From NCBI GenBank assembly GCA_030673965.1, contig JAUTCN010000008.1:1-64000 (forward strand): DNA of 64,000 nt, given 5' to 3'. Below are positions 5,229-38,914 of the stretch, piece after piece (positions within the stretch are counted from its first letter, which is position 1; each line of letters begins with the position of its first letter). The DNA is from Fusobacterium sp. JB019 (GTDB lineage Bacteria; Fusobacteriota; Fusobacteriia; Fusobacteriales; Fusobacteriaceae). The translations under genes were made by a program, and so were the position numbers. Below the pieces are notes generated by a model that searched no databases, was not told the origin of the DNA, and worked only from the letters and a program-made list of their open reading frames with translations.

Positions 5229-5240
5229 ATATAATTAAAT

Positions 5241-6530: not shown

Positions 6531-6600
6531 AAAAAGCTTGCAAAATTAATAAAATAGAGTTATTATATTTGAAATTAAAACAAAGGGGGAATTTTTTATA

Positions 6601-6765: not shown

Positions 6766-6810
6766 AAATTTAGATTTTAAATAAAACAGTAAGATAAATA
6801 AGTTGAAGTT

Positions 6811-6841
6811 AACCAGTCTAGCATATAGGCTGGTTTTTTAT
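6811..6841 (+). terminator. Intrinsic terminator after the small ORF
   Basis: AACCAGTCT / AGGCTGGTT (9 bp with one G-U in RNA, 7-nt loop) followed by TTTTTAT. Confidence 0.8.
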
Positions 6842-6871
6842 ATAATTGATATTTAAAAAAGGGGGCATAAA

Positions 6872-7954: not shown

Positions 7955-7998
7955 AAAAATATAGGATAAAATGTTATAAAAAGGTTACGGGAGAAATT

Positions 7999-8634: not shown

Positions 8635-8638
8635 TTAA

Positions 8639-9076: not shown

Positions 9077-9160
9077 ATTTATCTTCCTTTTTATAATATT
9101 TTGTAGACAATATTATATCATTTTTAGAAGAATAAAAAAATATTATTTTTCATATATAAA

Positions 9161-9169
9161 TGTTATAAT
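9161..9169 (+). promoter_or_regulatory. Extended -10 promoter for the HD-domain gene
   Basis: TGTTATAAT (TATAAT at 9164-9169), about 30 nt before the ATG at 9200, whose SD is AGAGG. Confidence 0.5.
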
Positions 9170-9199
9170 TAGTTTAATAATTTTAAAAGAGGTATGTAA

Positions 9200-18218: not shown

Positions 18219-20564
18219 TTATTTTATATGTTTTACTATTAAATCTTTTAAAAGTAAAGGATCAATAGGTTTAGGCATATAATCATTCATACCAGCTTCA
18301 AAGCATTTTCTTCTGTCTTCAGTAAAAGTATTTGCACTTAAAGCTAAAATAGGTAGAGTATTGTTTTCATGTAAACTATTTCTAATTTTTTTAGTGCATT
18401 CTATGCCATTCATAAGAGGCATTCTAATATCCATAATAACAAGGGAATAATAATTTTTAGAACTATTTATAAATTTTTCATATCCTTCTTTTCCATTAAC
18501 AGCTTCTTCAACAATAATATTATATTTTTCAAGATTTTTTCTAGCTACTAATCTATTTATTTCATTATCTTCCACAAGAAGTATTTTTTTATTTTTTAAT
18601 TTTAAATTGTTATCTTCTTTTGTTGAATCATTTAGACTGTTATTATTTTTAATATCAATATTTGTTTTAAATGAAATTTCAATAATAAAGGTAGTTCCTT
18701 TTCCAAGTTCACTTTGAACTTTTATATCACTGCCTCTTAAATTTAAAATTCCTTTAACAATTGGAAGACCTAGTCCAGTACCCTTTGTATTTCCTATATT
18801 TTCTCCTCTATGAAAAGGTTTAAATATATTAAGTTGATCTTCTTTAGAAATACCAATTCCATTATCTTTTACTTTAATTTCAAAGGAAGCGAGCCCTTCT
18901 TTCTTTTTTGTATAAATTTCATTAATATATACATCTATTCTTCCATTATTAGGTGTATATTTAATTGCATTTTCAATTAGAGCATTTGAAACTTTTATAA
19001 TACTAGAAGTATCTCCAATTAATAATTTGCTTTTTATATTAAAATGACTATAAATTTTTTGATTTTTTGTATCAGCTATAGGTATAAAGTCTTTTAAAAT
19101 AGAAGTGGCTAAAGAATCAAGATTAAATTCTTTTAACTGAAATTTAATTTTTCCACTATTAACTTTATTCATATCTAAAACTTCATTAATTATTTTTAAT
19201 AAATTTTTTGACGAGGTTTTAATAATATTTAGATTTTCTTTTACTTGCTCATTATTAACTCCAATAGCATTGTAAGTTAGATCAGTCATTCCAATAATAG
19301 CATTCATAGGAGTCTTTATGTCATGACTCATGCTAGCAAGAAAAGTTGTTTTTGTTTTATTTGCATTTTCAGCTAAGGCTAGAGCTTCTTTAAGAGCTTT
19401 ATTTTTTCTATCATTTTCATTATAAACATCAGTTATGTCTCTTCTTATAATATAGAATATACCATGCTTAAGATTAACATTTGAAATTTTTATTTCTTTA
19501 GTTCTAAGCTCATTTTTATTATTATATATTTTATAATATCTTTTAAATGATCCAAGTATTTTAATTTCTTTAAAGATACTTTTTAATGTTATTTTTTCTT
19601 TTTTCCTTAAATTTTCAGCAGCTTTTATATCAATAGAAATTAATTTTTCAAATTGCTTAAGAGTAAGGGTAAATTTTTTTTGAAAATTATTATTTTTTGT
19701 GGAACTATTAAAATAAACAAGATATTCATTTCTTTTATAATCTGCTCGTACTAAATAATCAAATTCATTTTGCACTACAAAATTTATAATATTATCAGTT
19801 TTCTTTTTATTATGAATATCCTTCATTGTTCCAATAATTTCTTTTACATTTGTTAATGGGTTTATAAATACATGATAACTCATTTTAATCCATTTATAGT
19901 CATGAATATTATCAAAATAAATTCTAATATCACAAGAAGTTTCTGTTTTGCCTAAAAAGAGATTATTATATAAATTTTCATAGGTTTGAATGTCGTCAGG
20001 ATGAATAATTTTTTCATCAATAATACATCTAGGAACATTTTCTATTTCTTTTTTATAATTTAACATATTTTCTCTATAACCCATGAAATTTCTGTAGTCA
20101 TAAACCTTTTTTTTATCAATATCATATCTCCAAATAGCAATGCCTAATTTTTTTAAAAGATCTTTATTATAAAGTTCTAAATTTGAAAAATGAGAAGCGA
20201 AAAAAGAGTTATCTTTATATGTTACATATATTTTTAAAGAGTTATCTTCTAAAAAAGTTATATTAGCTTCAGCTTGGAAATTATAATATTGCTTAGTGTT
20301 GTAATTATAGTATCTAGCTGAAAATTTTTCATTTTTATTTTTTGTTATATTTTTAAGTAAGTCTTCAATTATTATTTTATCTTCAGGATGTAAAAAAGGA
20401 GTATAAGTATTATTGTATTCATTAATTTTATTTCTATCTATTTCAAATAAATTTTCAAATTCTTTATTTCCCCAAATAAGATTTAATTTATTATTCTTAT
20501 AACTAAAAATAGATATTCCTATAGCAACATTGTCTATAACTTGTCGCTCAATTTCCTTTAACAT
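18219..20564 (-). CDS. Cytoplasmic PAS hybrid histidine kinase
   Basis: A 781-residue hybrid kinase with no transmembrane segment or signal peptide. Order: PAS-like sensory domains (about 1-130, 140-250 and a divergent one to about 370), HisKA with His414 in SMSHDIKTPMNA, HATPase_c (VKDNGIGIS, GTGLGLPI) and a C-terminal receiver with Asp712 in IMDIRMP. No DNA-binding or cyclase output is attached, so the phosphate must pass to a separate Hpt or regulator. PAS order and lack of membrane segments suggest an internal redox, light or metabolite cue. It is monocistronic with its own promoter. Confidence 0.88.
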   Translation of the reverse strand: MLKEIERQVIDNVAIGISIFSYKNNKLNLIWGNKEFENLFEIDRNKINEYNNTYTPFLHPEDKIIIEDLLKNITKNKNEKFSARYYNYNTKQYYNFQAEANITFLEDNSLKIYVTYKDNSFFASHFSNLELYNKDLLKKLGIAIWRYDIDKKKVYDYRNFMGYRENMLNYKKEIENVPRCIIDEKIIHPDDIQTYENLYNNLFLGKTETSCDIRIYFDNIHDYKWIKMSYHVFINPLTNVKEIIGTMKDIHNKKKTDNIINFVVQNEFDYLVRADYKRNEYLVYFNSSTKNNNFQKKFTLTLKQFEKLISIDIKAAENLRKKEKITLKSIFKEIKILGSFKRYYKIYNNKNELRTKEIKISNVNLKHGIFYIIRRDITDVYNENDRKNKALKEALALAENANKTKTTFLASMSHDIKTPMNAIIGMTDLTYNAIGVNNEQVKENLNIIKTSSKNLLKIINEVLDMNKVNSGKIKFQLKEFNLDSLATSILKDFIPIADTKNQKIYSHFNIKSKLLIGDTSSIIKVSNALIENAIKYTPNNGRIDVYINEIYTKKKEGLASFEIKVKDNGIGISKEDQLNIFKPFHRGENIGNTKGTGLGLPIVKGILNLRGSDIKVQSELGKGTTFIIEISFKTNIDIKNNNSLNDSTKEDNNLKLKNKKILLVEDNEINRLVARKNLEKYNIIVEEAVNGKEGYEKFINSSKNYYSLVIMDIRMPLMNGIECTKKIRNSLHENNTLPILALSANTFTEDRRKCFEAGMNDYMPKPIDPLLLKDLIVKHIK

Positions 20565-20633: not shown

Positions 20634-20766
20634 GATAAAAGATAACACTTGAAAATAAAACACTTGTAATCTATCAAAGCTCAAAAAACTTAATAAAAAT
20701 ATCTTAAATGTGATAGAATAAAAATGAAAAAATTAAGTGAAATTTAACAAATGTGATAGTAGATTA

Positions 20767-21015
20767 TTACAAAAATAAGGGATCTTGTAATTAGCTAAAT
20801 AAGAAACTAATTACAAGGTCCCTTTGTGTTTATATAGGTGAAAAAAGAGGTTCTAGAAGGTGTCTAACAAGCTCACTAAACCTATTTGTAAGTTGTTTAT
20901 TTTTAAAGAATTAAAATCAAAAAAACAGAAAAATGTCAAAAAAACATGATTTTTTACTAGAATATGCACAAAAGTATTTATATATTAGTACAAAATAAGG
21001 TTTTAGGTGCTAAAA
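20767..21015 (+). repeat. Repeat A: approximately 250-bp element upstream of the restriction-like operon
   Basis: This noncoding block aligns along its whole length with 33685-33936 (roughly three quarters identical by eye). Its best-conserved part is a 16-bp hairpin, 20779-20794 with 20807-20822, whose single mismatch is a G-U in RNA. After it come the shared strings CCCTTTGTGTTTATATAGG, TCTAGAAGG and CTATTTGTAAGTT. No ORF, transposase or target-site duplication is visible. The rest of 20565-21198 has a repeated AAATGTGATAG (20706 and 20749), a terminator and a promoter. Confidence 0.75.
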
Positions 21016-21068
21016 AGAGGGTGTTTGGAAGGGGATAATTGAAAACAATAAAGGAGTATTTAATAATG

Positions 21069-21104
21069 AAAGAGTTAATGCTGTAGAAAGTGTTAACTCT
21101 TTTT
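21069..21104 (+). terminator. Intrinsic terminator between repeat A and the defence operon
   Basis: AAAGAGTTAA / TTAACTCTTT with a 14-nt loop and TTTTT tail, in noncoding sequence. It suggests that a short RNA covering repeat A ends here, or that it acts as an attenuator. Confidence 0.65.
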
Positions 21105-21151
21105 AAATATTAAAGAATATTTAAAATAAATAGAATTCGTATCTTAAAATG

Positions 21152-21160
21152 TGGTAAAAT
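21152..21160 (+). promoter_or_regulatory. Extended -10 promoter of the restriction-like operon
   Basis: TGGTAAAAT (box at 21155-21160), about 40 nt before the first ATG; no good -35. Confidence 0.45.
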
Positions 21161-21198
21161 TAAAATGACTTTTTAAAAACAAACTATGGGGGAAATTT

Positions 21199-24100
21199 AT
21201 GGAAGTTTTAGATAATAAAAGTGAAAGAGTTTATGATAAATTAAAAGAAAATTTACAAACAGGTAGCAAACTATCAATTATTTCGGCATATTTTACAATA
21301 TATGCATATGAAAATTTAAAAAAAGAATTAAATAAAATAGATAAATTAAGACTTTTATTTTCTGAGCCAACATTTATAAAAGAAAAAAAAGATATAAATA
21401 GAGAGTTTAAACTTAGTGGTAGTTATGAAAGAGGAATAGCTGGAGACAGGTATGAGATGAAACTGAAAGGTGAACTTAAGCAGTCAGAAATAGCAAAAGA
21501 ATGTGCTGAATGGATAAGAAAAAAAGTTGAAATTAGAGCAAGGGATGAAGAGTATCAATTGCCTCAAAAAATGTTTTTAGTAGAGAATAAAAAGGAAGAG
21601 GATATTACTATTTTTGGAAGCTCTGATTTTACAGCAAGTGGATTAGGGATAGTTCCATCTAAAAAAGAGGAATTTAATACATATATCAAAGAAAATAATT
21701 TAACTAAACAATTCATTAATAAATTTGAAGCTTATTGGGAAGATAAAGAAAAAGTAAAAGATGTAAAAAAAACAGTTTTAGAAAATTTAGAGCAAGTATA
21801 TAAAGAAAATACTCCAGAATTTATATATTATATAACTTTATATAATATATTTAAGGACTATTTACAAGGATTAACAGAAGAAGAAATAGTTCAAACTAAA
21901 ACAGGTTTTATGGATAGTATTGTATGGAATAAATTATATAATTTTCAAAGAGATGGAGTTCTTGGGATTATAGATAAACTAGAAAAATATAATGGATGTA
22001 TTTTAGCTGATAGTGTTGGATTAGGGAAAACTTTTGAAGCTCTAGCTGTAATTAAATATTACGAATTAAAAAATAAAAGAGTTTTAGTTTTATGTCCTAA
22101 AAAATTAAGAGATAACTGGCTAACTTATAAAGGAAATAGAATAGATAATATATTAGAAAAAGATAGATTAAACTACGATGTTTTAAATCATACAGATTTG
22201 TCTAGATATCATGGTAAAAGTGGTGAAATTGATTTAGCTAAAATTTACTGGGAAAATTATGATTTGATTGTAATTGATGAATCTCATAATTTTAGAAATA
22301 ATAATAATCCAAGTAAAGAAGGAAAAGAGACAAGATACTCTAGACTTTTAGAAAAGATAATTAAAGCAGGAATAAAAACAAAAGTCCTTATGCTTTCAGC
22401 TACTCCTGTGAATAATAAAATGAATGATTTAAAAAATCAAATAGCTTTTGCAACAGAAGGAAATGACGGAGCACTATCTAATTATGGAATAAAAAGTATA
22501 GAACAAACTCTAAGAAAGGCTCAAATGGCTTTTAATAGTTGGAATGAACAAATAGAAGAAGAAAAAACTTTAGAATCTTTACTTGAAAAATTAAATATGG
22601 ATTATTTTAAGTTACTAGATATGGTCACTATAGCTAGATCTAGAAGACATATTCAAAAATATTATGATACTTCTAGTATAGGTGAATTTCCAGAAAGATT
22701 AAAGCCTAAAAATATAAAAGCTAAAATAGATACAGAAGATAATTTTATGGAATTAAAAGATTTGAATAAAAAAATAAGAATGCTAAATATGGCTATGTAT
22801 TCTCCGATAAAATATGTTTTGCCTCATAAAATAAATTATTATAATAAACTTTATGATACTAAAATGAAAAATTCTACTTTTAGACAAATAGATAGAGAAG
22901 AAAGTTTGGTTAATTTAATGAGAGTAAATATATTAAAAAGATTGGAAAGTTCAATTCATTCTTTTGGGCTTACTGTTGGGAAATTATTAACTCATATTGA
23001 TATTATTTTACAGAAATTAGATATGGCTGATAATATAGAAGAATTTGATTTTGAAGGCTTAGATTTAGAAGATCCAAGACTTCAAGATTATACAGTGGGA
23101 AGTAAAAAAGTAAAAGTTTTAATTAATGATATTGATAAATTGAAGTGGAAAAGTGATTTAGAATATGACAAAAAAATATTAGAGAAAATTATAAAAGAAA
23201 CATATAAAATAAATGTTTCTCGTGATGAAAAATTAAGAAAATTAAAAGAAATTATAAGAGAAAAAATTAATAATCCAATTAATGGAGAAAATAAAAAAGT
23301 TTTAGTTTTTACAGCTTACGCAGATACAGCTAAATATTTGTATGAAAATATTTATAAAGCTTTGGAGAAAGAAGGGATATATTCAGCTATTGTAACTGGT
23401 AGTGATAAACCTAGAACAAACTTAAAATTAAAATTTAAAGAATTTAATAATATATTAACTAATTTTTCTCCTAGATCAAAGGGAAGACGAGAAGAGGGGA
23501 AAGAAATAGATTTGTTAATAGCAACAGATTGTATATCTGAAGGTCAGAATTTACAAGATTGTGACTATTTAATTAATTATGATATTCATTGGAATCCTGT
23601 AAGAATTATTCAGAGATTTGGAAGAATAGATAGAATAGGTTCTCAAAATAAAATAATTCAGTTATGTAATTTTTGGCCAAATATGGAGCTAGATGAATAT
23701 ATTAATCTAGAATCAAGAGTTACAGGTAGGATGGTAATGCTTGATATGTCTGCAACAGGTGAAGATAATGTTATAGATGAAAATGAAAATTCTATGAATG
23801 ATTTAGAATACAGAAAAAGACAATTAAAACAATTACAAGATCAAGTAATAGATTTAGAGGATATAAATGGAAATATATCTATTACAGATCTAAATTTTAA
23901 TGATTTTAAAATGGATTTAGTTAATTTTCAGAAGAATAATAATCAAGATATGGTGAATATACCTACAGGAATGTATGCTATAGCTAAGCAAAATATATCT
24001 GAAGCTGAAAAAGGAGTTATATTTTGTCTAAAACAAATAAATAAAGATATAAAACCTAGTGAAAATAATCCATTGAATCCATTCTTTTTAGTATACATTA

Positions 24101-24405
24101 AAGATAATGGAGATATATTATATAACTTTATTCAAAGCAAAAAAATATTAGATTTATATAAGAAATTATGTAGTGGTAAAAATGAACTTTATAAAGAATT
24201 AATAAGTAATTTTAACTTAGAAACAGATAACGCTGATGATATGACAAAATTTACAAAATTCTTAGAAGCTACAGTTGAAAATATAATAGGAAAAGAAGAA
24301 GAAAAAGGGTTAGAAAGTTTGTTTTCTTTTGGATTAAGTAACATTCAAGGAGAAAATAAAAATTTAGATGATTTTGAGTTAATATCATTTTTAGTTATTA
24401 AGTAG
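21199..24405 (+). CDS. SNF2-type helicase with N-terminal PLD-like domain
   Basis: A 1068-residue ATP-dependent DNA translocase. Residues 1-180 form a phospholipase-D-like domain ending in IFGSSDFTASGLG, but where active members have HxK the sequence reads PQK (LPQKMFLV), so the nuclease His seems missing. The helicase core follows: Walker A ADSVGLGKT (Lys277), DESH (from Asp360), SATPVNN, and the C-terminal lobe with TDCISEGQNLQ and QRFGRIDRIGSQ. Its relatives (HepA-like, PLD-fused) occur in DISARM-type and other defence loci. It is the first gene of a six-gene run spaced by 3-23 nt, so it probably supplies DNA translocation for the restriction complex. Confidence 0.85.
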   Translation: MEVLDNKSERVYDKLKENLQTGSKLSIISAYFTIYAYENLKKELNKIDKLRLLFSEPTFIKEKKDINREFKLSGSYERGIAGDRYEMKLKGELKQSEIAKECAEWIRKKVEIRARDEEYQLPQKMFLVENKKEEDITIFGSSDFTASGLGIVPSKKEEFNTYIKENNLTKQFINKFEAYWEDKEKVKDVKKTVLENLEQVYKENTPEFIYYITLYNIFKDYLQGLTEEEIVQTKTGFMDSIVWNKLYNFQRDGVLGIIDKLEKYNGCILADSVGLGKTFEALAVIKYYELKNKRVLVLCPKKLRDNWLTYKGNRIDNILEKDRLNYDVLNHTDLSRYHGKSGEIDLAKIYWENYDLIVIDESHNFRNNNNPSKEGKETRYSRLLEKIIKAGIKTKVLMLSATPVNNKMNDLKNQIAFATEGNDGALSNYGIKSIEQTLRKAQMAFNSWNEQIEEEKTLESLLEKLNMDYFKLLDMVTIARSRRHIQKYYDTSSIGEFPERLKPKNIKAKIDTEDNFMELKDLNKKIRMLNMAMYSPIKYVLPHKINYYNKLYDTKMKNSTFRQIDREESLVNLMRVNILKRLESSIHSFGLTVGKLLTHIDIILQKLDMADNIEEFDFEGLDLEDPRLQDYTVGSKKVKVLINDIDKLKWKSDLEYDKKILEKIIKETYKINVSRDEKLRKLKEIIREKINNPINGENKKVLVFTAYADTAKYLYENIYKALEKEGIYSAIVTGSDKPRTNLKLKFKEFNNILTNFSPRSKGRREEGKEIDLLIATDCISEGQNLQDCDYLINYDIHWNPVRIIQRFGRIDRIGSQNKIIQLCNFWPNMELDEYINLESRVTGRMVMLDMSATGEDNVIDENENSMNDLEYRKRQLKQLQDQVIDLEDINGNISITDLNFNDFKMDLVNFQKNNNQDMVNIPTGMYAIAKQNISEAEKGVIFCLKQINKDIKPSENNPLNPFFLVYIKDNGDILYNFIQSKKILDLYKKLCSGKNELYKELISNFNLETDNADDMTKFTKFLEATVENIIGKEEEKGLESLFSFGLSNIQGENKNLDDFELISFLVIK

Positions 24406-24416
24406 GGGGAATACTT

Positions 24417-25127
24417 ATGGATTATTTTGGATTTTCAAAAGAATTTAAAATGGATAAATTTTTGCCAAAAGAACTGATATATAAGCAGATAGATGCAAAG
24501 GAAGTAACTAAAAAATTATTTGTTGATAATATTGAGAAGATAAAAATAAGAAGTTCTATAAAAGAAGAGGGAAGTAATATTAAAACTTATAGAGATTTGG
24601 AATCAAAAGAAGTTTATGAAGAAATACTTTTCTTAAAAATTGAGCTTAAAAAGAAGGGGAAAGAAGAAAAAATAGTAGATATTTTTCATAAGATATTTCC
24701 AAGACAAACAGTATTAGAACTTAAATATGATAATTTAACTTATCTTTCCTGTGCAAATAAAAAAATAGGAAAAAATTTGCAAACAATAGAAAAAATTTAT
24801 AATACAGGTTGGTTTAAGGAAGAAAAGGAAAAGGAATTTATAGAAAGCTTAAATTATAGAAATTATGATTTAACTAATTTAAAAACTTTTTATGAAAGTA
24901 TTTTAGAGAGAATAAAATTATATATTGAAATAAAAGCGAGTAAAGAAAAAATAAATATTAAAAATGCTATAGGAGATAAATTATTTTTAGAAAAATTAGA
25001 AAAAATTAATGAAAAAATAGACATATTAAAAAATCAAAGAAAAAAAGAAACTCAAATAAAACAAGTGGCAGAAATACAAGAAAAATTATTAGAGTTAATT
25101 TTAGAAAGAAGAAATTTAGTTAAATAA
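24417..25127 (+). CDS. DUF4391-like protein
   Basis: A 236-residue cytoplasmic protein. The pattern KFLPKELIYKQIDAKEV near the start, an I-K-I-R-S-S-I block, and KIFPRQTVLELKYDNLTYLSCANKK in the middle match my memory of DUF4391 (PF14335), a family that nearly always neighbours helicase and methyltransferase genes in restriction islands. The C-terminal 60 residues are a charged helix that may form a coiled coil. It sits 11 nt after the helicase. A structural or specificity role in the complex is likely, but no function has been shown to my knowledge. Confidence 0.65.
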   Translation: MDYFGFSKEFKMDKFLPKELIYKQIDAKEVTKKLFVDNIEKIKIRSSIKEEGSNIKTYRDLESKEVYEEILFLKIELKKKGKEEKIVDIFHKIFPRQTVLELKYDNLTYLSCANKKIGKNLQTIEKIYNTGWFKEEKEKEFIESLNYRNYDLTNLKTFYESILERIKLYIEIKASKEKINIKNAIGDKLFLEKLEKINEKIDILKNQRKKETQIKQVAEIQEKLLELILERRNLVK

Positions 25128-25150
25128 TAATCTATAAGGGGATGAGAGTA

Positions 25151-27304
25151 ATGGAAACATTGGATGTTCGTTTGAAAGATTGCTATGGTATTAATTTGTT
25201 AGAATATGATTTTAAATTTAAAGATAAAAATATGTATATGATTTATGCTCCTAATGGAACGATGAAGACATCTTTTGCAAAAACCTTTAAAGATATAATG
25301 AATGGGCAAATGCCAAAGGAACAAATTAAGGGTAGTGATGGAGAATATAGCTTAATAACTGATGAAGGGGAATTAGATGCTGAAAAAATATTTGTTATTA
25401 ATTCATATGAAGAAACTTATCAATGTAAAAATTTATCAAAATTGTTATTAAAAAATGAAATAAAGGAAGAATATGATCGCTTAGTAAAAGAGATAGAAAC
25501 AGCTAAGGATGTATTTTTAAAAAAAGTTTTAGAAACATTTGGAGGTAAAAAAAATAGTTTAGAGTCTGAATTTAATAAATTTTATGAAAAGAAATTATCT
25601 GTAAAAAATATTATAGATATAGAACGAGAAGATATAAAAATCATACAAAATTTAAATTATAAATATTTAGAAATATTTAATGATAAGGCGATAGCTTTAA
25701 TGAAAAAGAGAACTTTTCAAGAGAATATAGAAAAATATATAGACTTATATGATGAATTGCTTGAAAATTCTAAGTTATTTAAAAAAGGTGGTATAAATCA
25801 TAATAATTTTGATGAAATTATTAAATCAATAGAAAAGAATAGATTTTTTTCTATTGATAATAAATTAATTTTGGCTAATGGGAAAGAAGTTTCAAATGAT
25901 ACAGAATTTAAAGAAGCATTAGAAGAAGAGAAAAATAATATTTTAGCAGATAAAAATCTTTTGAAAATATTTCAAAGTATAGATAGATTACTAAAAAATC
26001 AAGAAACAAAGAAATTAAGAGAAATTTTAGAAGAAAAACCAGAATTAATTTTAGAGTTAGAAAATTTAGAATTATTTCAAAGAAAAATTTGGAAAAGTTA
26101 TTTTTTGCTAGGAGAAGAAGAATATAAGAAATTAAAAGAAAAATATGAAGAAAATTATGGAAAAATAACAAATATTTTAGAGAAAGCAAAGGCAGAGAAA
26201 ACTTTATGGGAAGAAACAATAGAAAAGTTTAATCAAAGATTTCAGTTGCCATTTGAAGTACAAATTGAAAACAAAGAAAATGTTTTAGTTGGAATAGAAG
26301 AACCAAGAATAAATTTTATATATTCAGGAAAGAAACTTTCGGGTCAGGAATTAAAGAATGATATATTGAGTACAGGAGAAAAAAGAGCATTTTATTTGCT
26401 AGAGATAACATATGAAATAGAAAATCTAAAAAAAGAAAATAAAGAAAAACTGTTAATATTAGATGATATTGCAGATTCTTTTGATTATAAAAATAAATAT
26501 GCCATTATAGAGTATTTAAATGATTTATTAAAAGAAGAGAATTTTAAAATAATTATATTAACTCATAATTTTGATTTTTATAGAACTATAGCATCTAGAT
26601 TAGAGTTGCAAAAGAATTCTTTGATAGCTTTAAAATCTAATGGGGAAATTAAACTTGAAAAAGGGCAATATTTTAAAAGTGTATTTACTTATTGGAAACC
26701 CAAAATTTTATCTAATGAAAAACTTCTAGTTGCAACAATTCCATTTGTTAGAAACTTAATAGAATATTCTATTGGAGCAAAAGATGAAACAGGAGATTGG
26801 GATAAAAATTATATATTTTTAACTAATTTATTACATTATAAATTTGAAGATACAGAAAGTATAAAAGTGGAAGATTTGAAAAATTGTTATATAACTTCAT
26901 GGTTTCATAATGGTGAAAAAATTAAGAATGATGGTAGAAAAGTTATTGATGTGCTTTTTAATGAATCAGAAAAATTAATTAAAAATACCCAGGAGAGCAT
27001 TAACTTAGAAGATAAAATACTTTTATCTATGGCGTGTAGATTAAGGTGCGAAAAAAATATGTTTAAAGATATTTTAGAAAAAGATAGTAGTTATAAATCA
27101 AAAGATAAAAATCAAACTAGAGATTTAACAGATAAATATAAAGAATTAAAATTAAATAAAGATAATTTAAATTTAATAGAAGAAGTTAATTTAATGACTG
27201 CAGAAAATATACATTTAAATTCATTTATGTATGAACCATTAATTGATATATCTAGCAATCATTTGAAAAATTTATATGAAAATTTAAAAAATAATTGGAG
27301 GTAA
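25151..27304 (+). CDS. RecF/SMC-like AAA ATPase
   Basis: A 717-residue ABC-type ATPase. The P-loop near residue 36 is APNGTMKTSF, a variant with Met where SMC/RecF proteins have Gly, but with the Lys-Thr retained. A long charged helical middle (about 90-380) is followed by STGEKRAFYLLEI (signature motif), LLILDDIADSFDYKN (Walker B, D-loop) and IILTHNFDF (switch His). Such ATPases in defence islands often sense phage DNA or gate a nuclease. ATG 25151 is chosen over ATG 25142 because the latter abuts the SD AAGGGG. No nuclease domain (TOPRIM, HNH) is apparent in the last 200 residues. Confidence 0.72.
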   Translation: METLDVRLKDCYGINLLEYDFKFKDKNMYMIYAPNGTMKTSFAKTFKDIMNGQMPKEQIKGSDGEYSLITDEGELDAEKIFVINSYEETYQCKNLSKLLLKNEIKEEYDRLVKEIETAKDVFLKKVLETFGGKKNSLESEFNKFYEKKLSVKNIIDIEREDIKIIQNLNYKYLEIFNDKAIALMKKRTFQENIEKYIDLYDELLENSKLFKKGGINHNNFDEIIKSIEKNRFFSIDNKLILANGKEVSNDTEFKEALEEEKNNILADKNLLKIFQSIDRLLKNQETKKLREILEEKPELILELENLELFQRKIWKSYFLLGEEEYKKLKEKYEENYGKITNILEKAKAEKTLWEETIEKFNQRFQLPFEVQIENKENVLVGIEEPRINFIYSGKKLSGQELKNDILSTGEKRAFYLLEITYEIENLKKENKEKLLILDDIADSFDYKNKYAIIEYLNDLLKEENFKIIILTHNFDFYRTIASRLELQKNSLIALKSNGEIKLEKGQYFKSVFTYWKPKILSNEKLLVATIPFVRNLIEYSIGAKDETGDWDKNYIFLTNLLHYKFEDTESIKVEDLKNCYITSWFHNGEKIKNDGRKVIDVLFNESEKLIKNTQESINLEDKILLSMACRLRCEKNMFKDILEKDSSYKSKDKNQTRDLTDKYKELKLNKDNLNLIEEVNLMTAENIHLNSFMYEPLIDISSNHLKNLYENLKNNWR

Positions 27305-27307
27305 AAA

Positions 27308-27637
27308 ATGGTAAGTAATTATATGAAAACTGTTTATAGAATTTTGAAAATAATAGATCTTTCAAGGGATAAAGAAGATTTTAATTTTGATAAAGAATTT
27401 GATTTAGAAAAATTAGAGATTGATGAAAAAAGATTTGAAGATATATTAGAAACACTAAATGAAAATGGTTATATTAAAGGAATAAAAATTTCAAGAAGTA
27501 TTAATGGAGCTTCAACTATAAGTATTTCAAGTCCAAGATTAACATTAGATGGAATGGAATATTTGGAAGAGAATACAGTAATGAAAAATGTATATAAAGC
27601 ATTAAAAGAAGCAAAAGAATGGATTCCAGGACTATAA
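27308..27637 (+). CDS. YjcQ-like small winged-helix protein
   Basis: A 109-residue protein resembling the YjcQ family (PF09639): an N-terminal helix (YRILKIIDLS), a wing-like LNENGYIKGIKISR, then LTLDGMEYLEENTVMKNVYKALKEAKEWIPG at the end. The fold is a winged helix, so DNA binding is plausible. It is only 3 nt after the ATPase and 18 nt before the methyltransferase, with SD GGAGG, and so is part of the same operon. Similar small genes occur beside restriction-modification and phage genes; it may regulate the operon or be a subunit. Confidence 0.6.
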   Translation: MVSNYMKTVYRILKIIDLSRDKEDFNFDKEFDLEKLEIDEKRFEDILETLNENGYIKGIKISRSINGASTISISSPRLTLDGMEYLEENTVMKNVYKALKEAKEWIPGL

Positions 27638-27655
27638 ATTTTAAAGGAGTAAATA

Positions 27656-29617
27656 ATGAAGGTTGAGAAAATGAATGGAGAAACGCTAGATATAACAAAA
27701 AATAATATAGAAAAATTAAAGGAAATTTTTCCAGATATATTTACTGAAGGAAAAATAGATTTTGAAGCGTTGAAAGAAAATCTGGGAGAAGAGATTGAAA
27801 CAGAAAATGAAAAATATTATTTTAGTTGGAATGGAAAAGAGCAAGCTAAAAAAATAGCAAGAGATCCAAGTAAAGGAACTTTAAGACCAGCTAAAGAAGA
27901 TTCTAAAGACTGGGATAATACAGAAAATTTATATATAGAAGGGGATAATTTAGAAGTTTTAAAATTATTGCAAAAATCATATTATGAACAAGTAAAAATG
28001 ATATATATAGATCCTCCTTATAATACAGGGAAAGATTTTGTTTATAAAGATAATTTTAAAGATAATCTAGAAAATTACTTAAAAGTAACAGGGCAAGTAG
28101 ATGAAGATGGTGATAAACAATCTACTAATAAAGAAACAGAGGGAAGATATCATTCAAATTGGCTTAATATGATGTATCCAAGATTAAAGTTAGCAAGAAA
28201 TCTTTTAAGGGAAGATGGAGTAATATTTATTTCAATAGATGATAATGAAGTGCATAATTTAAGAAAAATATGTGATGAAATATTTGACGAAATAAATTTT
28301 ATTGCAAAATTTATTCACAAGAATAATTCTAATAAAAACCAAGCTAATCTGGTGAGTATTTCCTGTGAATACTTTCTATGCTATGCAAAAAATAAAGATG
28401 AATTAAAAAATGTATGTTGGAGAATGGAAAAAAAGGGAGCCAAGGATATAGTTAGAATTTATGAGAAATTGAAAAAAGAAGGACTTAGTTTAGATGATAT
28501 TCTTGATGAAATCAAAGAGTTATATAAAAGACCAAAATATGCTCATTTGAGTAGATGGAATAAAATAGATGAACAAGGTGTATTTATGGATGATAATCTT
28601 TCAAGGGAAGGTGGGGCAAAAGATTACACTATTATTAATTCTGAAACAAAAAAACCTTGTCCTATTCCACCAAGAGGTTGGGCTAAATCTAAAGATGAAT
28701 TGGATAAACTTGTAGAAAAAAAATTAATATATTTTGGAGACCCTAAAACGCCACCAAGGATAAAATCTTATTTAACTGGTGAAGATATATCTGTTCCGGA
28801 TAGTTTTTGGTATATAGATAATTCAACTGATACAAGATGGCAAAAACAAAAATTTGGTTTTTTAATTTTTGAAAATCCAAAGGCTGTTGAATTGATAAGG
28901 TTAATTGGTGAAATGCTTTCTGACAAGAGGTCAATTATTTTAGATTTCTTCTCTGGTTCAGCAACAACAGCACATGCAGTAATGAAACTTAATGCTGAAG
29001 ATGGAGGAAAGAGAAAATATATAATGGTGCAATTACAAGAAGAAACAGGTGAAAAGTCAGAAGCTTTTAAAAATGGATATAAAAATATATGTGAAATAGG
29101 AAAAGAAAGAATAAGAAGAGCAGGAGAACAAGTAAAAGAAGAGGTAGAAACAGAAAATCAACAATTAAAGTTAGGAGAAGAGCCTAAAAAAGTTCCAGAT
29201 ATAGGATTTAAAGTATTTAAATTAGAAACATCAAATATTAAAGAATGGGATAGTGAAACAGAAGATTTAGAAACATCATTACTTGATTTTATGGATAATT
29301 TAAAATCAGATAGAACTTCTTTAGATATAGTTTATGAAGTGCTTTTAAAATATGGATTACCACTAGATTCTAAAATAAAAGACAAGGGTAAATTTTACTC
29401 AGTAGCAGGAGGAACACTTCGTATAAATTTAGATAAAGTTATAGATGATGATACTATAAAAGCTATCTGTGATGACTATAGAAAAACTTTAGAAATAGAT
29501 GAAGATCATAAAACTACAGTTGTTTTAAGAGAAACTTCTTTTAGAGATTCAGTTGAAAAAACAAATAAAAAACATGAATTAGAACAAGCGGGAATAAAAG
29601 AAATAATTATAATATAA
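27656..29617 (+). CDS. mod: Type III restriction-modification DNA methyltransferase (Mod)
   Basis: A 653-residue beta-class N6-adenine methyltransferase. Motif IV YIDPPYNTG comes first (Asp119), and motif I DFFSGSATTAHAV at residues 430-442 comes after it, the order typical of type III Mod subunits. The region between, about 200-400, is where the target recognition domain lies; the C-terminal 200 residues would contact Res. No simple-sequence repeat that could make it phase-variable was seen. It precedes Res by 15 nt. Mod should methylate one strand of an asymmetric 5-6-bp site; the sequence specificity is not predictable by eye. Confidence 0.9.
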   Translation: MKVEKMNGETLDITKNNIEKLKEIFPDIFTEGKIDFEALKENLGEEIETENEKYYFSWNGKEQAKKIARDPSKGTLRPAKEDSKDWDNTENLYIEGDNLEVLKLLQKSYYEQVKMIYIDPPYNTGKDFVYKDNFKDNLENYLKVTGQVDEDGDKQSTNKETEGRYHSNWLNMMYPRLKLARNLLREDGVIFISIDDNEVHNLRKICDEIFDEINFIAKFIHKNNSNKNQANLVSISCEYFLCYAKNKDELKNVCWRMEKKGAKDIVRIYEKLKKEGLSLDDILDEIKELYKRPKYAHLSRWNKIDEQGVFMDDNLSREGGAKDYTIINSETKKPCPIPPRGWAKSKDELDKLVEKKLIYFGDPKTPPRIKSYLTGEDISVPDSFWYIDNSTDTRWQKQKFGFLIFENPKAVELIRLIGEMLSDKRSIILDFFSGSATTAHAVMKLNAEDGGKRKYIMVQLQEETGEKSEAFKNGYKNICEIGKERIRRAGEQVKEEVETENQQLKLGEEPKKVPDIGFKVFKLETSNIKEWDSETEDLETSLLDFMDNLKSDRTSLDIVYEVLLKYGLPLDSKIKDKGKFYSVAGGTLRINLDKVIDDDTIKAICDDYRKTLEIDEDHKTTVVLRETSFRDSVEKTNKKHELEQAGIKEIIII

Positions 29618-29632
29618 AAGGAGGTGATAATT

Positions 29633-32600
29633 TTGAAAATAAAATTTGAAAATAATTTAAAATATCAAGAGGAAGCAATAAAGTCTATAACTGATATTTT
29701 TAAAGGACAAGAAACTTGTAATACAATGTTTAGTATTATGAAAAAACAAGGAGTGCAGTACACTAATGGAATTGAAGCTTTTAGTAATGGTATTGGAAAT
29801 AAAATATCTTTGCTTCCAGAAGAAATTTTAGAAAATTTAAATAATATCCAAGAAAGAAATGGACTTTCAAAAACTAAAAAAATATCACCTTCTGACTATA
29901 ATTTTACAGTTGAAATGGAAACAGGAACAGGGAAAACTTATGTTTATTTAAGAACTATCCTAGAATTAAATAAGTTATATGGATTTTTAAAATTTATAAT
30001 TGTAGTTCCTTCAATAGCTATAAAAGAAGGAGTATTTAAAACGTTAGAAATAACAAGAGAACATTTTTCAGAACTTTACAATAATGTTACTTATGACTAT
30101 TTCACTTATGATTCTAAAAGGGTTTCAAATATTATTAATTTTGCTCAAAGTAATAATATTCAAATAATGATAATAAATAGAGATTCATTCAATAAAGAAA
30201 GTAATATATTAAATAAGTCAAGTGATAGTTCAGAAGCTATTGGTTATGAAAGACCTATGGAATTTATTAAAGAAACTAATCCAATAGTAATAGTGGATGA
30301 GCCTCAAAATATGGAAAGTGAAAAATCTAAAATGGCTCTTAGTAATCTAAATCCAATATGCACTTTAAGATATTCAGCAACACATAAAAAGAAATATAAT
30401 TATGTATATAAATTGAATTCTATTGATGCTTATGAGAAGCAATTAGTAAAACAAATAGAGGTTGCTACTGTAGGAATAACAGAAACTAATAATACAGATT
30501 ATATAAAGTTATTAAGTGTAAATTTAAATAAAAAAACTGGAATGATCAGTGCTAAGCTAGAAATGGATGTTAAATCTGGTAAAAAAGTTTCAAGAAAAGA
30601 AGTGAAAGTAATAAAAGGAGAAGATCTATCACAAAAAGCTAAAAGAAGCATATATGATGGTTATGAAGTTATAGATATTTCTGTTAAATCTGGTGATGAA
30701 TGGATAGATTTAGGAAAAGTAAAATTAAAGTTAGATCAAGTTAATGGTGGTTTAGAACCAGATATAATAAAAAGACTTCAAATAAGAAGAACAGTCCAAG
30801 AACATTTAGACAAACAATTAAGACTAAAATCTCAAGGGATAAAAGTTTTATCTTTATTTTTTGTAGATAAAGTTGCAAATTATAGAATTTATGATGAAGA
30901 AGGAAATCCTCATAAGGGTAAGTATGCTAAAATATTTGAAGAAGAATATAGAAAATTATTAGAAACAGGAAAATACAATGATATTTTAGATGGGGCTTTT
31001 TCAATAAAAGAAAGAGCTGAAATAGTTCACGATGGTTATTTCTCAAAAGATAAAAAAAGAAATAAAAAAACAGGAAAAGATTATTATGAGGAAAAAGATA
31101 CCAAAGGAAACACTGCTTCAGATAATGAAACATTTAATAAAATAATGAAAGAAAAAGAAAAATTATTAAGTTTTAAAGAACCACTTTCTTTTATATTTTC
31201 ACATTCAGCTTTAAAAGAGGGTTGGGATAATCCAAATGTATTTCAAATTTGTACTTTAGTTGAAACAAAATCAGAAATGAGTAAAAGACAAAAGATAGGG
31301 AGAGGTCTTAGAATAGCTGTAAATCAAAATGGTGAAAGAGTAAAAGGATTTGAAGTTAATACATTAACAGTTATGGCTAATGAATCTTATGAAGAATTTG
31401 CAGATGGGTTACAAAATGAAATAGGAAAAGAAGAGAATGTTAGTTTTGGAATAATAGAGGAATTTATATTTTCTAATATTGTTATAGAAATAAAGAATGG
31501 AAAAGAAGTTTATTTGGGACATGAAAAATCTAAAGAGCTATATAATCATTTAATAGCTAATGATTATATAAATGAAAAGGGAGTTCCTGAAGATAAGTTA
31601 AAAACAGCTTTAAAAACAGATACATTTGAAGTTCCAAAAGAATTTGAAAGTTTTAAAGAAACAATAGCAAAGAAAATAAAATCTTCAGTAGGTAAATTAA
31701 CAATAAAAGATGCTGATAAAAAAGTGAAAGTTAAAATAAATAAGGAAGTTTTCTTAAGTGAAGAGTTCAAAGAATTATGGGATAAGGTTAAATATAGAAC
31801 TACTTATTTTGTTGATTTTGATGAAGAAAAATTGATAAAAAAATGTGTTGAGGGCTTAGATGAAGAAATTTATATATCAAAAGTTAAAGAAACTTATTCT
31901 AAAGTAAAACTAAAACTTGAAAAATCAGGAGTAAATTTAGGACAAATTTCAGGGGTAGAAGAAGAGTTGAAACATATAGACTATAATTATAGATTACCAG
32001 ATATTCTTTCATATTTGCAAAATGAGACTAATTTAACAAGAAAAGCAATCGTTAAGATTTTAACAACAAGTAAAACTTTAAATGCCTTTAAAAAGAATCC
32101 TCAACTTTATTTAGAACAAGCAACAGATATTATAAAAAGAATAATGAAAAGTTTTGTTGTAGATGGAATAAAATATGAAAAACTAGGAGAAAGTGAATAT
32201 TATTGCCAAGAATTATTTGAAGATAAAGAATTAATTGGATATTTGAAAACGCAAGCTAATGAAAACGGAAATTTAATAGAAAGTAAAAAATCTCCTTATA
32301 ATTATGTGGTTTATGATTCTAGTACAATAGAAAATCCTTTTGTAGTGGATATGGAAAAATCAGAGAATGTTAAGTTTTATGCAAAGCTTCCCTCTTGGTT
32401 TAAGATAGATACTCCTTTAGGTTCTTATAATCCAGATTGGGTAGTACTTTTAAATGAAGATTTATCAGAAAAATTATATTTTGTAATAGAGACAAAGGGA
32501 ACTAATTATATATCAGAATTAAGAATAGATGAACAGAATAAAATTAAATGTGCGAGAAAACATTTTGAAGCTTTAGGTACAGGAGTAGAATATAAGGCTC

Positions 32601-32638
32601 CAATAAAAAGTTTAGGAAGTTTTTTTGATAAAATTTAA
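29633..32638 (+). CDS. res: Type III restriction enzyme (Res)
   Basis: A 1001-residue superfamily 2 helicase-nuclease. Walker A METGTGKTY (Lys101), DEPQ box (from Asp222), SAT motif (LRYSATHKK), and helicase motif VI KRQKIGRGLRIA are all visible. The C-terminal endonuclease domain has NPDWVV followed by FVIETKG, the PD-(D/E)xK core, so cutting should be intact. With Mod it makes the type III complex that cuts unmodified DNA. The start is TTG at 29633, 8 nt after GGAGG within an AAAGGAGGTGAT SD; a GTG nine bases upstream lies inside that SD. Confidence 0.9.
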   Translation: MKIKFENNLKYQEEAIKSITDIFKGQETCNTMFSIMKKQGVQYTNGIEAFSNGIGNKISLLPEEILENLNNIQERNGLSKTKKISPSDYNFTVEMETGTGKTYVYLRTILELNKLYGFLKFIIVVPSIAIKEGVFKTLEITREHFSELYNNVTYDYFTYDSKRVSNIINFAQSNNIQIMIINRDSFNKESNILNKSSDSSEAIGYERPMEFIKETNPIVIVDEPQNMESEKSKMALSNLNPICTLRYSATHKKKYNYVYKLNSIDAYEKQLVKQIEVATVGITETNNTDYIKLLSVNLNKKTGMISAKLEMDVKSGKKVSRKEVKVIKGEDLSQKAKRSIYDGYEVIDISVKSGDEWIDLGKVKLKLDQVNGGLEPDIIKRLQIRRTVQEHLDKQLRLKSQGIKVLSLFFVDKVANYRIYDEEGNPHKGKYAKIFEEEYRKLLETGKYNDILDGAFSIKERAEIVHDGYFSKDKKRNKKTGKDYYEEKDTKGNTASDNETFNKIMKEKEKLLSFKEPLSFIFSHSALKEGWDNPNVFQICTLVETKSEMSKRQKIGRGLRIAVNQNGERVKGFEVNTLTVMANESYEEFADGLQNEIGKEENVSFGIIEEFIFSNIVIEIKNGKEVYLGHEKSKELYNHLIANDYINEKGVPEDKLKTALKTDTFEVPKEFESFKETIAKKIKSSVGKLTIKDADKKVKVKINKEVFLSEEFKELWDKVKYRTTYFVDFDEEKLIKKCVEGLDEEIYISKVKETYSKVKLKLEKSGVNLGQISGVEEELKHIDYNYRLPDILSYLQNETNLTRKAIVKILTTSKTLNAFKKNPQLYLEQATDIIKRIMKSFVVDGIKYEKLGESEYYCQELFEDKELIGYLKTQANENGNLIESKKSPYNYVVYDSSTIENPFVVDMEKSENVKFYAKLPSWFKIDTPLGSYNPDWVVLLNEDLSEKLYFVIETKGTNYISELRIDEQNKIKCARKHFEALGTGVEYKAPIKSLGSFFDKI

Positions 32639-32645
32639 ATAATAG

Positions 32646-32677
32646 ATTCCGTTAATTGTTTAAATGATTAACGGAAT
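32646..32677 (+). terminator. Probable terminator of the restriction-like operon
   Basis: ATTCCGTTAAT / ATTAACGGAAT, 11-bp perfect stem, 10-nt loop, but only a mixed A/T tail (TATATAATTT). Confidence 0.6.
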
Positions 32678-32699
32678 TATATAATTTAAAATTAAAGAA

Positions 32700-32745
32700 G
32701 GGCATATAATCATGCGAACATGAATATATCCCCTCCGGTTTCGGT
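32700..32745 (+). ncRNA. Compact two-hairpin RNA-like element, possible riboswitch or sRNA
   Basis: GGG-c-ATATA-a-TCATG [CGAA] CATGA-a-TATAT-CCC folds into a 13-bp hairpin with an A-A mismatch, one bulged C and a CGAA tetraloop (32700-32732). CCG-GTTT-CGG follows directly. This G+C-rich island stands out in the A+T-rich gap between Res and the GIY-YIG gene, 70-115 nt upstream of the latter's start. I could not assign it to a known RNA family by eye. Confidence 0.45.
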
Positions 32746-32816
32746 AATTAATTTTATCAAAATAGATATGTTTTGTAAATATAAATTTTAATTAATATGA
32801 TAAAAGGGAGTGAAAT

Positions 32817-33647
32817 ATGGCTTATGGGAAAACTATAAAGATATTTTTAATGGATGGGGAATCTAGTGGAAAAGCTTCTTGTGAATTATCAAATTGGATG
32901 GGAAGAGTCTTTAGGATACCTAGAAATTTAGTGAATAAATCAAATATAAAAGAAATAGCTTTAACAGGAGTCTACTTTTTAATAGGTTATGATGAAGAAA
33001 CTAATAAGAAAAGTGTATATATAGGAGAAGCTGAAAATATAGAAGAAAGATTGAAACAGCATCTTAAAGAAAAAGATTTTTGGACAGAATGTTTATTTGT
33101 TATAAGCGATAGAAATAATTTGAATAAAGCTCATATAAAATATTTAGAAAATTCTTTTTATAATTTAGCAATAAAGTCAAATCAATATAAAGTTATAAAT
33201 AAAAATGAACCGTCAAAATCATCAATATCTGATGCTGAAGAAGCTGAAATGGTTGAATTTATAGATAATACAAAAATTTTAATTAATACTTTAGGTTATA
33301 AAGCTTTTGAACCTTTAGTTTCTGAAGAAAAATTAGAAAAAGAAACTGAAGAAATTTTGTATTTAAATTATAAAAATATAAAAGCTAAGGCATTAATGAC
33401 TAGTGAAGGATTTGTTTTATTAAAAGGAAGCCAAATTATAGAAGAAGTGAAAGACTATATTCCAAATGGATATAAAGCTCTTAGAATAAAATATAAAGAT
33501 AAAATTAAAAATTTAGAAACTATAGAAGATCTACTTTTTAATAGTCCTAGTGCAGCAGCAGTTTTTGTAACTGGTAAAAATCAAAATGGACCTAAAATGT
33601 GGAAAAATAAAGATGGGAAAACATTGAAAGAATTGGAAGAAAATTAA
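32817..33647 (+). CDS. GIY-YIG nuclease-family protein with DUF4357-like tail
   Basis: A 276-residue protein. Residues about 50-150 are a GIY-YIG domain: GVYFLIGYDE, VYIGEAENIEERLKQH, and a later Glu in YLENSFYNLA, the expected order of the Tyr, Gly-Arg and Glu active-site elements. The last 60 residues (LLFNSPSAAAVFVTGKNQNGPKMWKN) match my recollection of DUF4357, which is often fused to this nuclease in restriction islands. It stands alone after the Res terminator and RNA-like element, with SD GGGAG. A role in DNA cleavage or repair linked to the restriction operon is inference. Confidence 0.78.
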   Translation: MAYGKTIKIFLMDGESSGKASCELSNWMGRVFRIPRNLVNKSNIKEIALTGVYFLIGYDEETNKKSVYIGEAENIEERLKQHLKEKDFWTECLFVISDRNNLNKAHIKYLENSFYNLAIKSNQYKVINKNEPSKSSISDAEEAEMVEFIDNTKILINTLGYKAFEPLVSEEKLEKETEEILYLNYKNIKAKALMTSEGFVLLKGSQIIEEVKDYIPNGYKALRIKYKDKIKNLETIEDLLFNSPSAAAVFVTGKNQNGPKMWKNKDGKTLKELEEN

Positions 33648-33684
33648 GAAGAGATAGTTGCTTAAGGGTTGTAATTACATATCG

Positions 33685-33936
33685 TTACAAAATAAGAAGG
33701 GCCTTGTGATTGGCTAAATAAGAAGCTGATTACAAGGTCCCTTTGTGTTTATATAGGCGAAAAAAGATGCTCTAGAAGGCACTTAATAAGCCTACCAACC
33801 CTATTTGTAAGTTCTTTATTTTTAAAAGTTTAAAATCAAAAAAATCTAAAAATAGTGAAAAAAGCATAAATGTTTACCGTAATATGTACAAAAATACTTA
33901 TAAACTAGTATAAATCAAGTTTTTTAGAGGTTAAAA
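33685..33936 (+). repeat. Repeat B: second copy of the 250-bp element, upstream of tetR-zorABCD
   Basis: Direct-orientation counterpart of 20767-21015. The hairpin is conserved (left arm from 33699, right arm 33725-33741), with three positions that differ from perfect pairing all becoming G-U and one base missing, as expected if pairing is kept in RNA. Shared strings include TACAAGGTCCCTTTGTGTTT and ATTTGTAAGTT. The two copies bracket the first defence cassette and each lies just upstream of a defence transcription unit. Fills the gap 33648-34017 apart from the promoter below. Confidence 0.75.
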
Positions 33937-33947
33937 TTAAGAAAATA

Positions 33948-33956
33948 TGCTATAAT
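33948..33956 (+). promoter_or_regulatory. Extended -10 promoter of tetR
   Basis: TGCTATAAT (TATAAT at 33951-33956) 12 nt after repeat B; about 60 nt before the ATG. Confidence 0.6.
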
Positions 33957-34017: not shown

Positions 34018-34653
34018 ATGAAAAGAGAATTAAGAAAAAAGGAAATTATGGCAGCAGCTAGAAAGATAATAATTGAAAGAGGTTATAAAAAGACTAGCGT
34101 TCAAGAAATAACAAATGAAGTAGGGATAGCTAAAGGAAGTTTTTATACTTATTTTAAATCAAAAAGTGAATTAGTTGTAGCTTTAATATTAGATAGAATA
34201 TCAAATATTAAAGAAAAAAATCAGTTGATTTTAAAAGATGAAATTTCTTTAACCAATGCCTTTGAAAAGTATGCTTATAATGTTACTAGAGTACCCATAG
34301 AAGATCCTGAATTTTTTATTATAATGATGAAATTGTTTGAGTGTAGAGAAGACTTAGAAAAAGGAGTTAGAGAAGAATTATTTTCTATGCGTTTGAGAAG
34401 AGGAAATTTTATAAGATTAATTTTAAATAAATATAAAGAACAAATAGATATAACAAAAGAAGAAGAAATTGAAAGATATGTGGGAATGATAAGCGGTTTA
34501 GTAGATACTTATTATGAAAATGTTGTTGTCCCATTAGTTAGTAAAAGTGAGATTATAAGTGTGGAAGAAACAAAAAAATTAGTAAAAAAAATAGATATAG
34601 ATTATGAAGTTAGCTTTATGAAAAAATGTATATTAAAATTAATACTAAAATAA
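34018..34653 (+). CDS. TetR-family transcriptional regulator
   Basis: A 211-residue TetR-type repressor. The N-terminal HTH (about 10-55) reads IMAAARKIIIERGYKKTSVQEITNEVGIAKGSFYTYFKSKSEL, a textbook TetR signature; the rest is an all-helical ligand domain without recognisable specificity. SD CAGGAG. It lies between repeat B and zorA, same strand, separated from zorA by a terminator and a promoter. It may control the Zorya operon, or may simply be a neighbour; no obvious palindromic operator is seen in the 106-nt gap to zorA. Confidence 0.85.
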   Translation: MKRELRKKEIMAAARKIIIERGYKKTSVQEITNEVGIAKGSFYTYFKSKSELVVALILDRISNIKEKNQLILKDEISLTNAFEKYAYNVTRVPIEDPEFFIIMMKLFECREDLEKGVREELFSMRLRRGNFIRLILNKYKEQIDITKEEEIERYVGMISGLVDTYYENVVVPLVSKSEIISVEETKKLVKKIDIDYEVSFMKKCILKLILK

Positions 34654-34670
34654 ATAGCAGTAATTAATAG

Positions 34671-34701
34671 AAAAGCCTTGTTAAATCAAGGCTTTTTTTT
34701 G
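34671..34701 (+). terminator. Intrinsic terminator of tetR
   Basis: AAAAGCCTTG / CAAGGCTTTT with a 6-nt loop and eight T residues. Confidence 0.9.
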
Positions 34702-34728
34702 ATATATATTGAAAATATTTATAAATAA

Positions 34729-34759
34729 TTGATAAATTAATATAAAAATATGGTAGAAT
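34729..34759 (+). promoter_or_regulatory. Promoter of the Zorya operon
   Basis: TGGTAGAAT (box 34754-34759) as an extended -10, with TTGATA at 34729-34734 at a long 19-bp spacing. About 48 nt before zorA. Confidence 0.5.
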
Positions 34760-34807
34760 AAAATGGATTTTTTTAAATATATTAAATTAAATACATAGGG
34801 GTGAAAA

Positions 34808-36901: not shown

Positions 36902-36918
36902 ATTTAGAGGTGTTATAG

Positions 36919-38906: not shown

Positions 38907-38914
38907 GAGGAAGT

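What the first reader, a model, noticed from the sequence alone, without database searches (positions are those of the whole stretch)
20767..33936. A 250-bp repeat precedes each of two defence cassettes and keeps an RNA-like hairpin
Repeat A (20767-21015) and repeat B (33685-33936) are in the same orientation and bracket the restriction-like operon; B also precedes tetR-zorABCD. Each has a roughly 16-bp hairpin at its start. The copies have diverged, yet almost every position that departs from a perfect pair is a G-U wobble (one in A, three in B, plus one deleted base), which suggests selection on RNA pairing rather than DNA alone. No transposase, integrase or tRNA is nearby. It may be a structured RNA controlling defence genes, a non-autonomous mobile element, or a recombination module that stacks cassettes.
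Basis: partly seen in the sequence, partly recalled or inferred. Interest (0 to 1): 0.75.

Follow-up and report, generated by a model that had tools for sequence, protein, structure and literature searches.

The report
Short scattered repeat at defence genes
The two 250-base repeats are members of an old family of short non-coding repeats scattered in Fusobacteria; in this genome all six copies sit beside anti-phage or CRISPR genes, but they look like small interspersed DNA repeats rather than a conserved RNA that controls those genes.

Summary
The repeat pair is real: A (20765-21016) and B (33684-33937) are 81% identical, and each begins with a strong hairpin (z = -7.6 and -8.3).

The pair is only part of the story. 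A profile of A, B and a third copy finds exactly six copies in this genome, all intergenic. Besides A and B, the other four lie in or beside: the tail of a CRISPR array near Cas13c (C); between a CRISPR array and its I-B cas operon (D); near another CRISPR array (E); and after an Avs1/Lamassu-like operon (F). A sister species has one copy, between restriction genes. A distant homologue has about 60 copies in the MAG UBA2433, mostly beside housekeeping genes.

So this is a dispersed small interspersed repeat family. It has no terminal inverted repeats and no ORF. In this genome it is strongly enriched at defence loci (base rate roughly 4-12% of gaps).

The conserved-RNA claim fails. The long hairpin is confined to A and B, pairing across the family shows no covariation beyond shuffles, orientation relative to neighbours is inconsistent, and the likely promoters of both defence operons lie downstream of the repeats.

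The A/B hairpins probably act as terminators or insulators. The repeats may also offer homology for cassette turnover, but no crossover was seen.

The parts
20765..21016 (+). Repeat copy A (family member, non-coding), between a divergent histidine kinase gene and the restriction-like operon
   Evidence: (R2 match 150.7 bits)
20778..20823 (+). Hairpin of copy A: 17-bp stem (20778-20794 / 20807-20823), 12-nt loop
   Evidence: (z -7.6)
33684..33937 (+). Repeat copy B, 37 bp after the stop of the GIY-YIG gene and 81 bp before tetR
   Evidence: (150.0 bits)
33696..33744 (+). Hairpin of copy B, followed by CTTTGTGTTT; matches the intrinsic-terminator pattern for the restriction-like operon
21121..21179 (+). 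Likely promoter region of the restriction-like operon, downstream of A; 35 bp of it (21145-21179) are kept at 91% in the sister species, which lacks A
33948..33956 (+). Extended -10 (TGCTATAAT) of the likely tetR-zor promoter, downstream of B
   Evidence: sequence; read by eye, not flagged by the consensus scan
21199..33647 (+). Restriction-like operon bracketed by A and B: PLD/SNF2 helicase, DUF4391, SMC-like (PDC-S46), YjcQ, type III MTase, type III REase, GIY-YIG/DUF4357 (PDC-S14)
34018..42409 (+). tetR and Zorya zorA-zorB-zorC-zorD
18219..20564 (-). Histidine kinase, divergent neighbour on the 5' side of A; conserved in synteny in the sister species

Best explanation
A and B are two copies of a small interspersed non-coding repeat (about 250-330 bp, no ORF, no terminal inverted repeats) that belongs to an old Fusobacteriaceae family. 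The family has six copies in this genome, one in a sister species, and probably a high-copy distant branch in another genus. It settles in gaps between transcription units. In this genome the surviving copies all lie at defence or CRISPR loci, most likely because these loci are horizontally gained, insertion-tolerant and carry the repeats along (inferred). Copies A and B have in addition a 17-20 bp hairpin that most likely works as a transcription terminator or insulator between neighbouring units (B at the end of the restriction-like operon; inferred from position and fold). As same-direction repeats they could support occasional gain or loss of the cassette between them (inferred, not observed).
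For: Six copies in G000 and one in sister G002, found with profiles. C is confirmed against 1000 shuffles (score 460 against a null maximum of 321). Contexts: C in the tail of a CRISPR array near Cas13c, with degenerate repeats on both sides; D between an array and cas6b-cas8b-cas7b...cas3b; E beside an array; F after an LmuA/Avs1a-like MBL gene and a 1476-aa gene; G2a beside a type I REase. A model built only from the UBA2433 repeats hits C, A and E and B and C, same strand, in register (model start 11-14 nt inside the R2 start). R2 hits UBA2433 in return. That genome has 60 copies; six other genomes of its genus have 3-9. About 22 inspected copies there are all intergenic, mostly at housekeeping genes. 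Sister G002 lacks A at the syntenic site. Base rate: about 2-5% of 135 sampled genes of G000 match PADLOC strongly. Terminator pattern at B.
Against: No target duplications or terminal inverted repeats were found, and no transposase that would move it, so mobility is inferred. The link to the UBA2433 family is distant (R3 on B 1.4e-5, on C 8e-4; a chance hit in a gene scored 3.6e-4), and R2 finds none of the low-copy g14 elements. Six of six copies at defence loci is more than a neutral repeat would give, so a defence-related role is not excluded. The terminator role was not tested.
Confidence: 0.72

Rival explanations
1. The repeat is a recombination or cassette-stacking module: copies at the edges of defence cassettes let RecA (or an unknown recombinase) swap, add or delete cassettes.
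For: All six G000 copies and the G002 copy lie at defence/CRISPR loci. A and B are direct repeats around one cassette, with a 29-nt identical run. The sister species shows turnover at the same site: the operon is reduced to a 266-bp GIY-YIG fragment (91% identical) joined to the operon promoter, and an ATPase gene stands in place of Zorya.
Against: The G002 deletion junction (21179/33114) is not at A or B. Copies are 50-80% identical, which is poor for RecA. C, D, E and F are single copies at one side of a system, in mixed orientation. No recombinase is nearby.
Confidence: 0.2
2. The repeat encodes or forms a structured RNA (leader or sRNA) that controls defence genes.
For: Very stable hairpins in A and B with G-U changes only. 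G2a also folds well (z -4.4). One short stem (cols 71-79/122-132) pairs in 87% of cells, against 21-43% when slid.
Against: The A/B hairpin is missing in C, D and E. There is no compensatory change in the short stem (0 pairs), no excess covariation in the A/B stem, a consensus energy of -0.9 and no Rfam match. Operon promoters lie downstream of A and B. C, D, F and G2a face array tails or gene 3' ends.
Confidence: 0.06
3. The repeat derives from a CRISPR leader or trailer that was copied to other loci.
For: Three of six copies (C, D, E) lie at arrays with the same CRISPR repeat. C and D are 76% identical and share sequence beyond the core.
Against: C and D lie at the trailer end, E beyond the opposite end behind a terminator. 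C interrupts the array. No CRISPR repeat is left at A, B or F (for the window). Homologues in UBA2433 lie at housekeeping genes.
Confidence: 0.05

Closest known systems
131-bp intergenic repeat of Fusobacterium nucleatum subsp. polymorphum (17 copies; PMC1924603)
   Same: Short non-coding repeat, nearly always intergenic, in Fusobacteriaceae, several to tens of copies, function unknown.
   Different: Length 131 against 250-330 bp; no defence-locus bias reported. Its sequence is only in a figure, so homology could not be tested.
Pneumococcal small interspersed repeats BOX, RUP and SPRITE (PMC3049150)
   Same: AT-rich intergenic repeats with hairpins; SPRITE resembles terminators, and these repeats are over-represented between convergent genes.
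   Different: RUP is thought to be mobilised in trans by IS630-Spn1; no such partner or terminal inverted repeats were found here. The passages read do not tie the pneumococcal families to defence loci.
ERIC-type repeats (about 127 bp, enterobacteria)
   Same: Simple, intergenic, imperfect palindromic repeat.
   Different: Unrelated sequence; here very few copies and far more diverged (comparison from general knowledge).
MITEs / IS200-IS605-type non-autonomous elements (PATEs)
   Same: Small, non-coding, hairpin-bearing, dispersed.
   Different: No terminal inverted repeats, no hairpin at both ends, no partner transposase seen.

Membership tests
Bacterial small interspersed repeat (general kind) | Several homologous non-coding copies dispersed in one genome | tested here: met
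   6 copies in G000, 60 in UBA2433
Bacterial small interspersed repeat (general kind) | Intergenic location, no ORF | tested here: met
   A-F, G2a and 22 copies in other genomes lie between ORFs
MITE | Terminal inverted repeats | tested here: not met
   12 copies, best end-to-end match p 0.06-1.0 against shuffles
MITE | Target-site duplication at an otherwise empty site | tested here: inconclusive
   Syntenic site of A in G002 lacks A, but window 20689-21144 is replaced by 48 bp, not a clean insertion
MITE | Cognate transposase in the genome | not tested
   No transposase beside the copies read; whole genome not scanned
Cis-regulatory structured RNA | Conserved fold with covariation | tested here: not met
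Cis-regulatory structured RNA | Consistent position in the 5' UTR of regulated genes | tested here: not met
   Mixed positions and orientations; promoters 3' of A and B
Cis-regulatory structured RNA | Known Rfam family | tested here: not met
   sub-threshold hits only for copy A
Intrinsic terminator (A/B hairpin) | GC-containing stem followed by a U-rich tract after a gene | tested here: met
   B: pattern match 33699-33740, 0.2 expected. A: stem present, loop too long for the scan, none flagged
CRISPR leader | Directly upstream of the leader-proximal repeat | tested here: not met
   C and D lie at the degenerate, trailer end
F. nucleatum 131-bp repeat | Sequence homology | not testable with these tools
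   Sequence only in a figure

The most novel reading that the evidence does not exclude
The repeat is a dedicated border element of defence cassettes in this Fusobacterium lineage: a site that attracts or recombines anti-phage and CRISPR cassettes and insulates their transcription, so that profile searches with it would reveal new defence systems.
Probability: 0.15. Interest if true: 0.75.

Novelty: new member of a known kind. Interest (0 to 1): 0.42.

Why it matters
If the defence bias holds in more strains, a simple DNA profile would mark the edges of defence islands in these Fusobacteria and help to find unknown systems. It would also give a testable case for how non-coding repeats travel with, or help shuffle, immune cassettes. 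If the bias is only because islands tolerate insertions, it is an ordinary repeat family, newly described, with precedent in F. nucleatum.

Tried and rejected
Plain DNA searches with B in the family gave only chance hits in the A-rich part. An exact 25-mer of A/B found nothing in genome or viral contigs, and phage and plasmid collections gave nothing. A 20-bp hit in G005 is inside a coding gene (chance). My first alignment of the L005 copy used the wrong strand and scored at chance; the reverse strand is the real match. Upstream regions of Zorya operons in other Fusobacteria carry no copy. Rfam sub-threshold hits (mir-883 and others) fall on the bare hairpin and were dismissed. R3 in G002:C2:37468 is inside a gene. 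Two genome-search runs failed and still counted. Pattern scans of viral contigs for the C-F and UBA2433 types gave nothing.

Full report
Observation. The two repeats are there. A and B align over about 240 bp at 81% identity in the same orientation, and both start with a hairpin that is far more stable than shuffled sequence (z -7.6 and -8.3). They bracket a seven-gene restriction-like operon and B lies before tetR-zorABCD. No tRNA and no Rfam family is present.

More copies. Plain BLAST-type searches found only A and B plus A-rich chance matches. One weak hit beside a CRISPR array turned out, on its other strand, to be a true third copy C: Smith-Waterman 460 against A with a null maximum of 321 in 1000 shuffles, and 332 against B with a null maximum of 276. 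A sequence profile of A, B and C found three more in the same genome, D, E and F, with E from 9e-20 to 2e-10, and one in sister species G002. A second profile from all seven confirmed exactly six copies in this genome and one in the sister. This is partly by construction, as the profile contains them, but no further copy appears.

Where they lie. C (G000:C2:33561-33803, minus) interrupts the decayed tail of a CRISPR array, with degenerate repeats on both sides. Cas13c and its own array are next to it. D (C2:189215-189467, minus) lies between an array and a type I-B cas operon. E (C2:353458-353717, plus) lies 250 bp from a third array. F (C2:432003-432255, plus) lies at the 3' end of an LmuA/Avs1a-like MBL gene and a 1476-aa gene whose N-terminus reads like a trypsin-type protease. 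The sister copy lies between type I restriction and other probable defence genes. So all seven are at defence or CRISPR loci.

Base rate. In a sample of 135 genes from 12 other places of the genome, about 2-5% match PADLOC strongly, including housekeeping relatives. A gap next to such a gene is therefore expected in roughly 4-12% of cases. Six of six is about 3e-6 at 12%. Counting A/B as one locus and C/D as one duplicated unit (four independent cases), it is about 2e-4. This estimate is rough: the sample was hand-placed and the arrays were not counted.

A wider family. UBA2433, a MAG of another genus (named), has a dispersed repeat with 60 copies, and six further genomes of its genus have 3-9. 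A model built only from six UBA2433 copies hits C, A and E as its only other matches in 251 kb, and B and C in the whole genome. All are on the right strand and in one register: model position 1 falls 11-14 nt after the start of the R2 profile in each. The first profile hits UBA2433 in return. The link is therefore probable but distant; the low-copy members do not match R2. In that genus the copies are intergenic and mostly at housekeeping genes, though several lie at type IV restriction, HsdM or nucleotidyltransferase genes. The family as a whole is thus not defence-specific.

RNA or DNA. On the seven-sequence alignment the A hairpin pairs in 52.5% of cells, with as many double changes as shuffles, and RNAalifold finds next to nothing. 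A short stem further in is kept at 87% of cells, against 21-43% when slid, but with no compensatory change. Moreover A and B are probably not in the leaders. The 35 bp before the first gene of the restriction operon, including a promoter-like site, are kept at 91% in the sister species without A, and an extended -10 (TGCTATAAT) of tetR lies after B (read by eye). B starts 37 bp after the stop codon of the GIY-YIG gene and matches the terminator pattern. A terminator or insulator is the simplest function for the A/B hairpin; this is inferred.

Mobility and cassette exchange. No terminal inverted repeats were found in 12 copies, and no transposase was seen beside the copies read. C interrupting an array and the absence of A at the same site in the sister species suggest insertion, but the empty site is not clean. 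The sister locus shows strong cassette turnover: the operon is reduced to its promoter plus a 266-bp, 91% identical piece of the GIY-YIG gene, and an ATPase gene takes the place of Zorya. The junction is not at A or B, so the recombination-module idea remains open.

Verdict. This is a newly described member of a known kind, small interspersed repeats. The nearest published precedent is a 131-bp intergenic repeat in F. nucleatum (PMC1924603), whose homology could not be tested. What is unusual is the complete association with defence and CRISPR loci in this genome.

Noticed in passing
L054 (G002:C9:50000-60000) 4916-5320 against window 20688-33379: The sister species keeps a scar at the same locus: operon promoter fused to a 266-bp, 91% identical fragment of the GIY-YIG gene, then an AAA ATPase gene directly before the flavodoxin gene. 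The locus is a defence exchange site.
   Followed up: partly
L093 (G000:C2:24000-42000) 3451-9474: Cas13c (type VI-C) followed by its own array (repeat AGACTAAACTCACTAATGTGAGATTTAAAC) and then a second array with the repeat of the type I-B arrays; each array is preceded by the same CTGTCGACC...GATCGACAG terminator-like sequence.
   Followed up: partly
L005 1429-1875: Copy C interrupts the distal, decayed end of a CRISPR array (degenerate repeats on both sides, 33-nt spacer kept beyond it).
   Followed up: partly
UBA2433 (G056), e.g. L099 4310-5310: 60 copies of a distant homologue, some in tandem clusters and joined to a second repeat module (TTCGTGTAAATTTGTGTAATTCGTGAC).
   Followed up: partly
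L141, L148, L156, L157: In four of about 22 inspected contexts in other genomes the repeat lies near PLD/helicase type IV restriction genes (PADLOC mREase_IV for L141, L148, L157; L156 by sequence similarity), often with a mutT gene.
   Followed up: partly
window 1235-1534 and 5233-5532: A 300-bp direct repeat (86%) inside two paralogous genes 4 kb apart.
   Followed up: no
L046/L054, histidine kinase: The histidine kinase next to A is interrupted by a TGA stop in the sister species.
   Followed up: no
window 37653-38906: The zorC gene of this Zorya is short (417 aa) and matches ZorC models only in parts.
   Followed up: no
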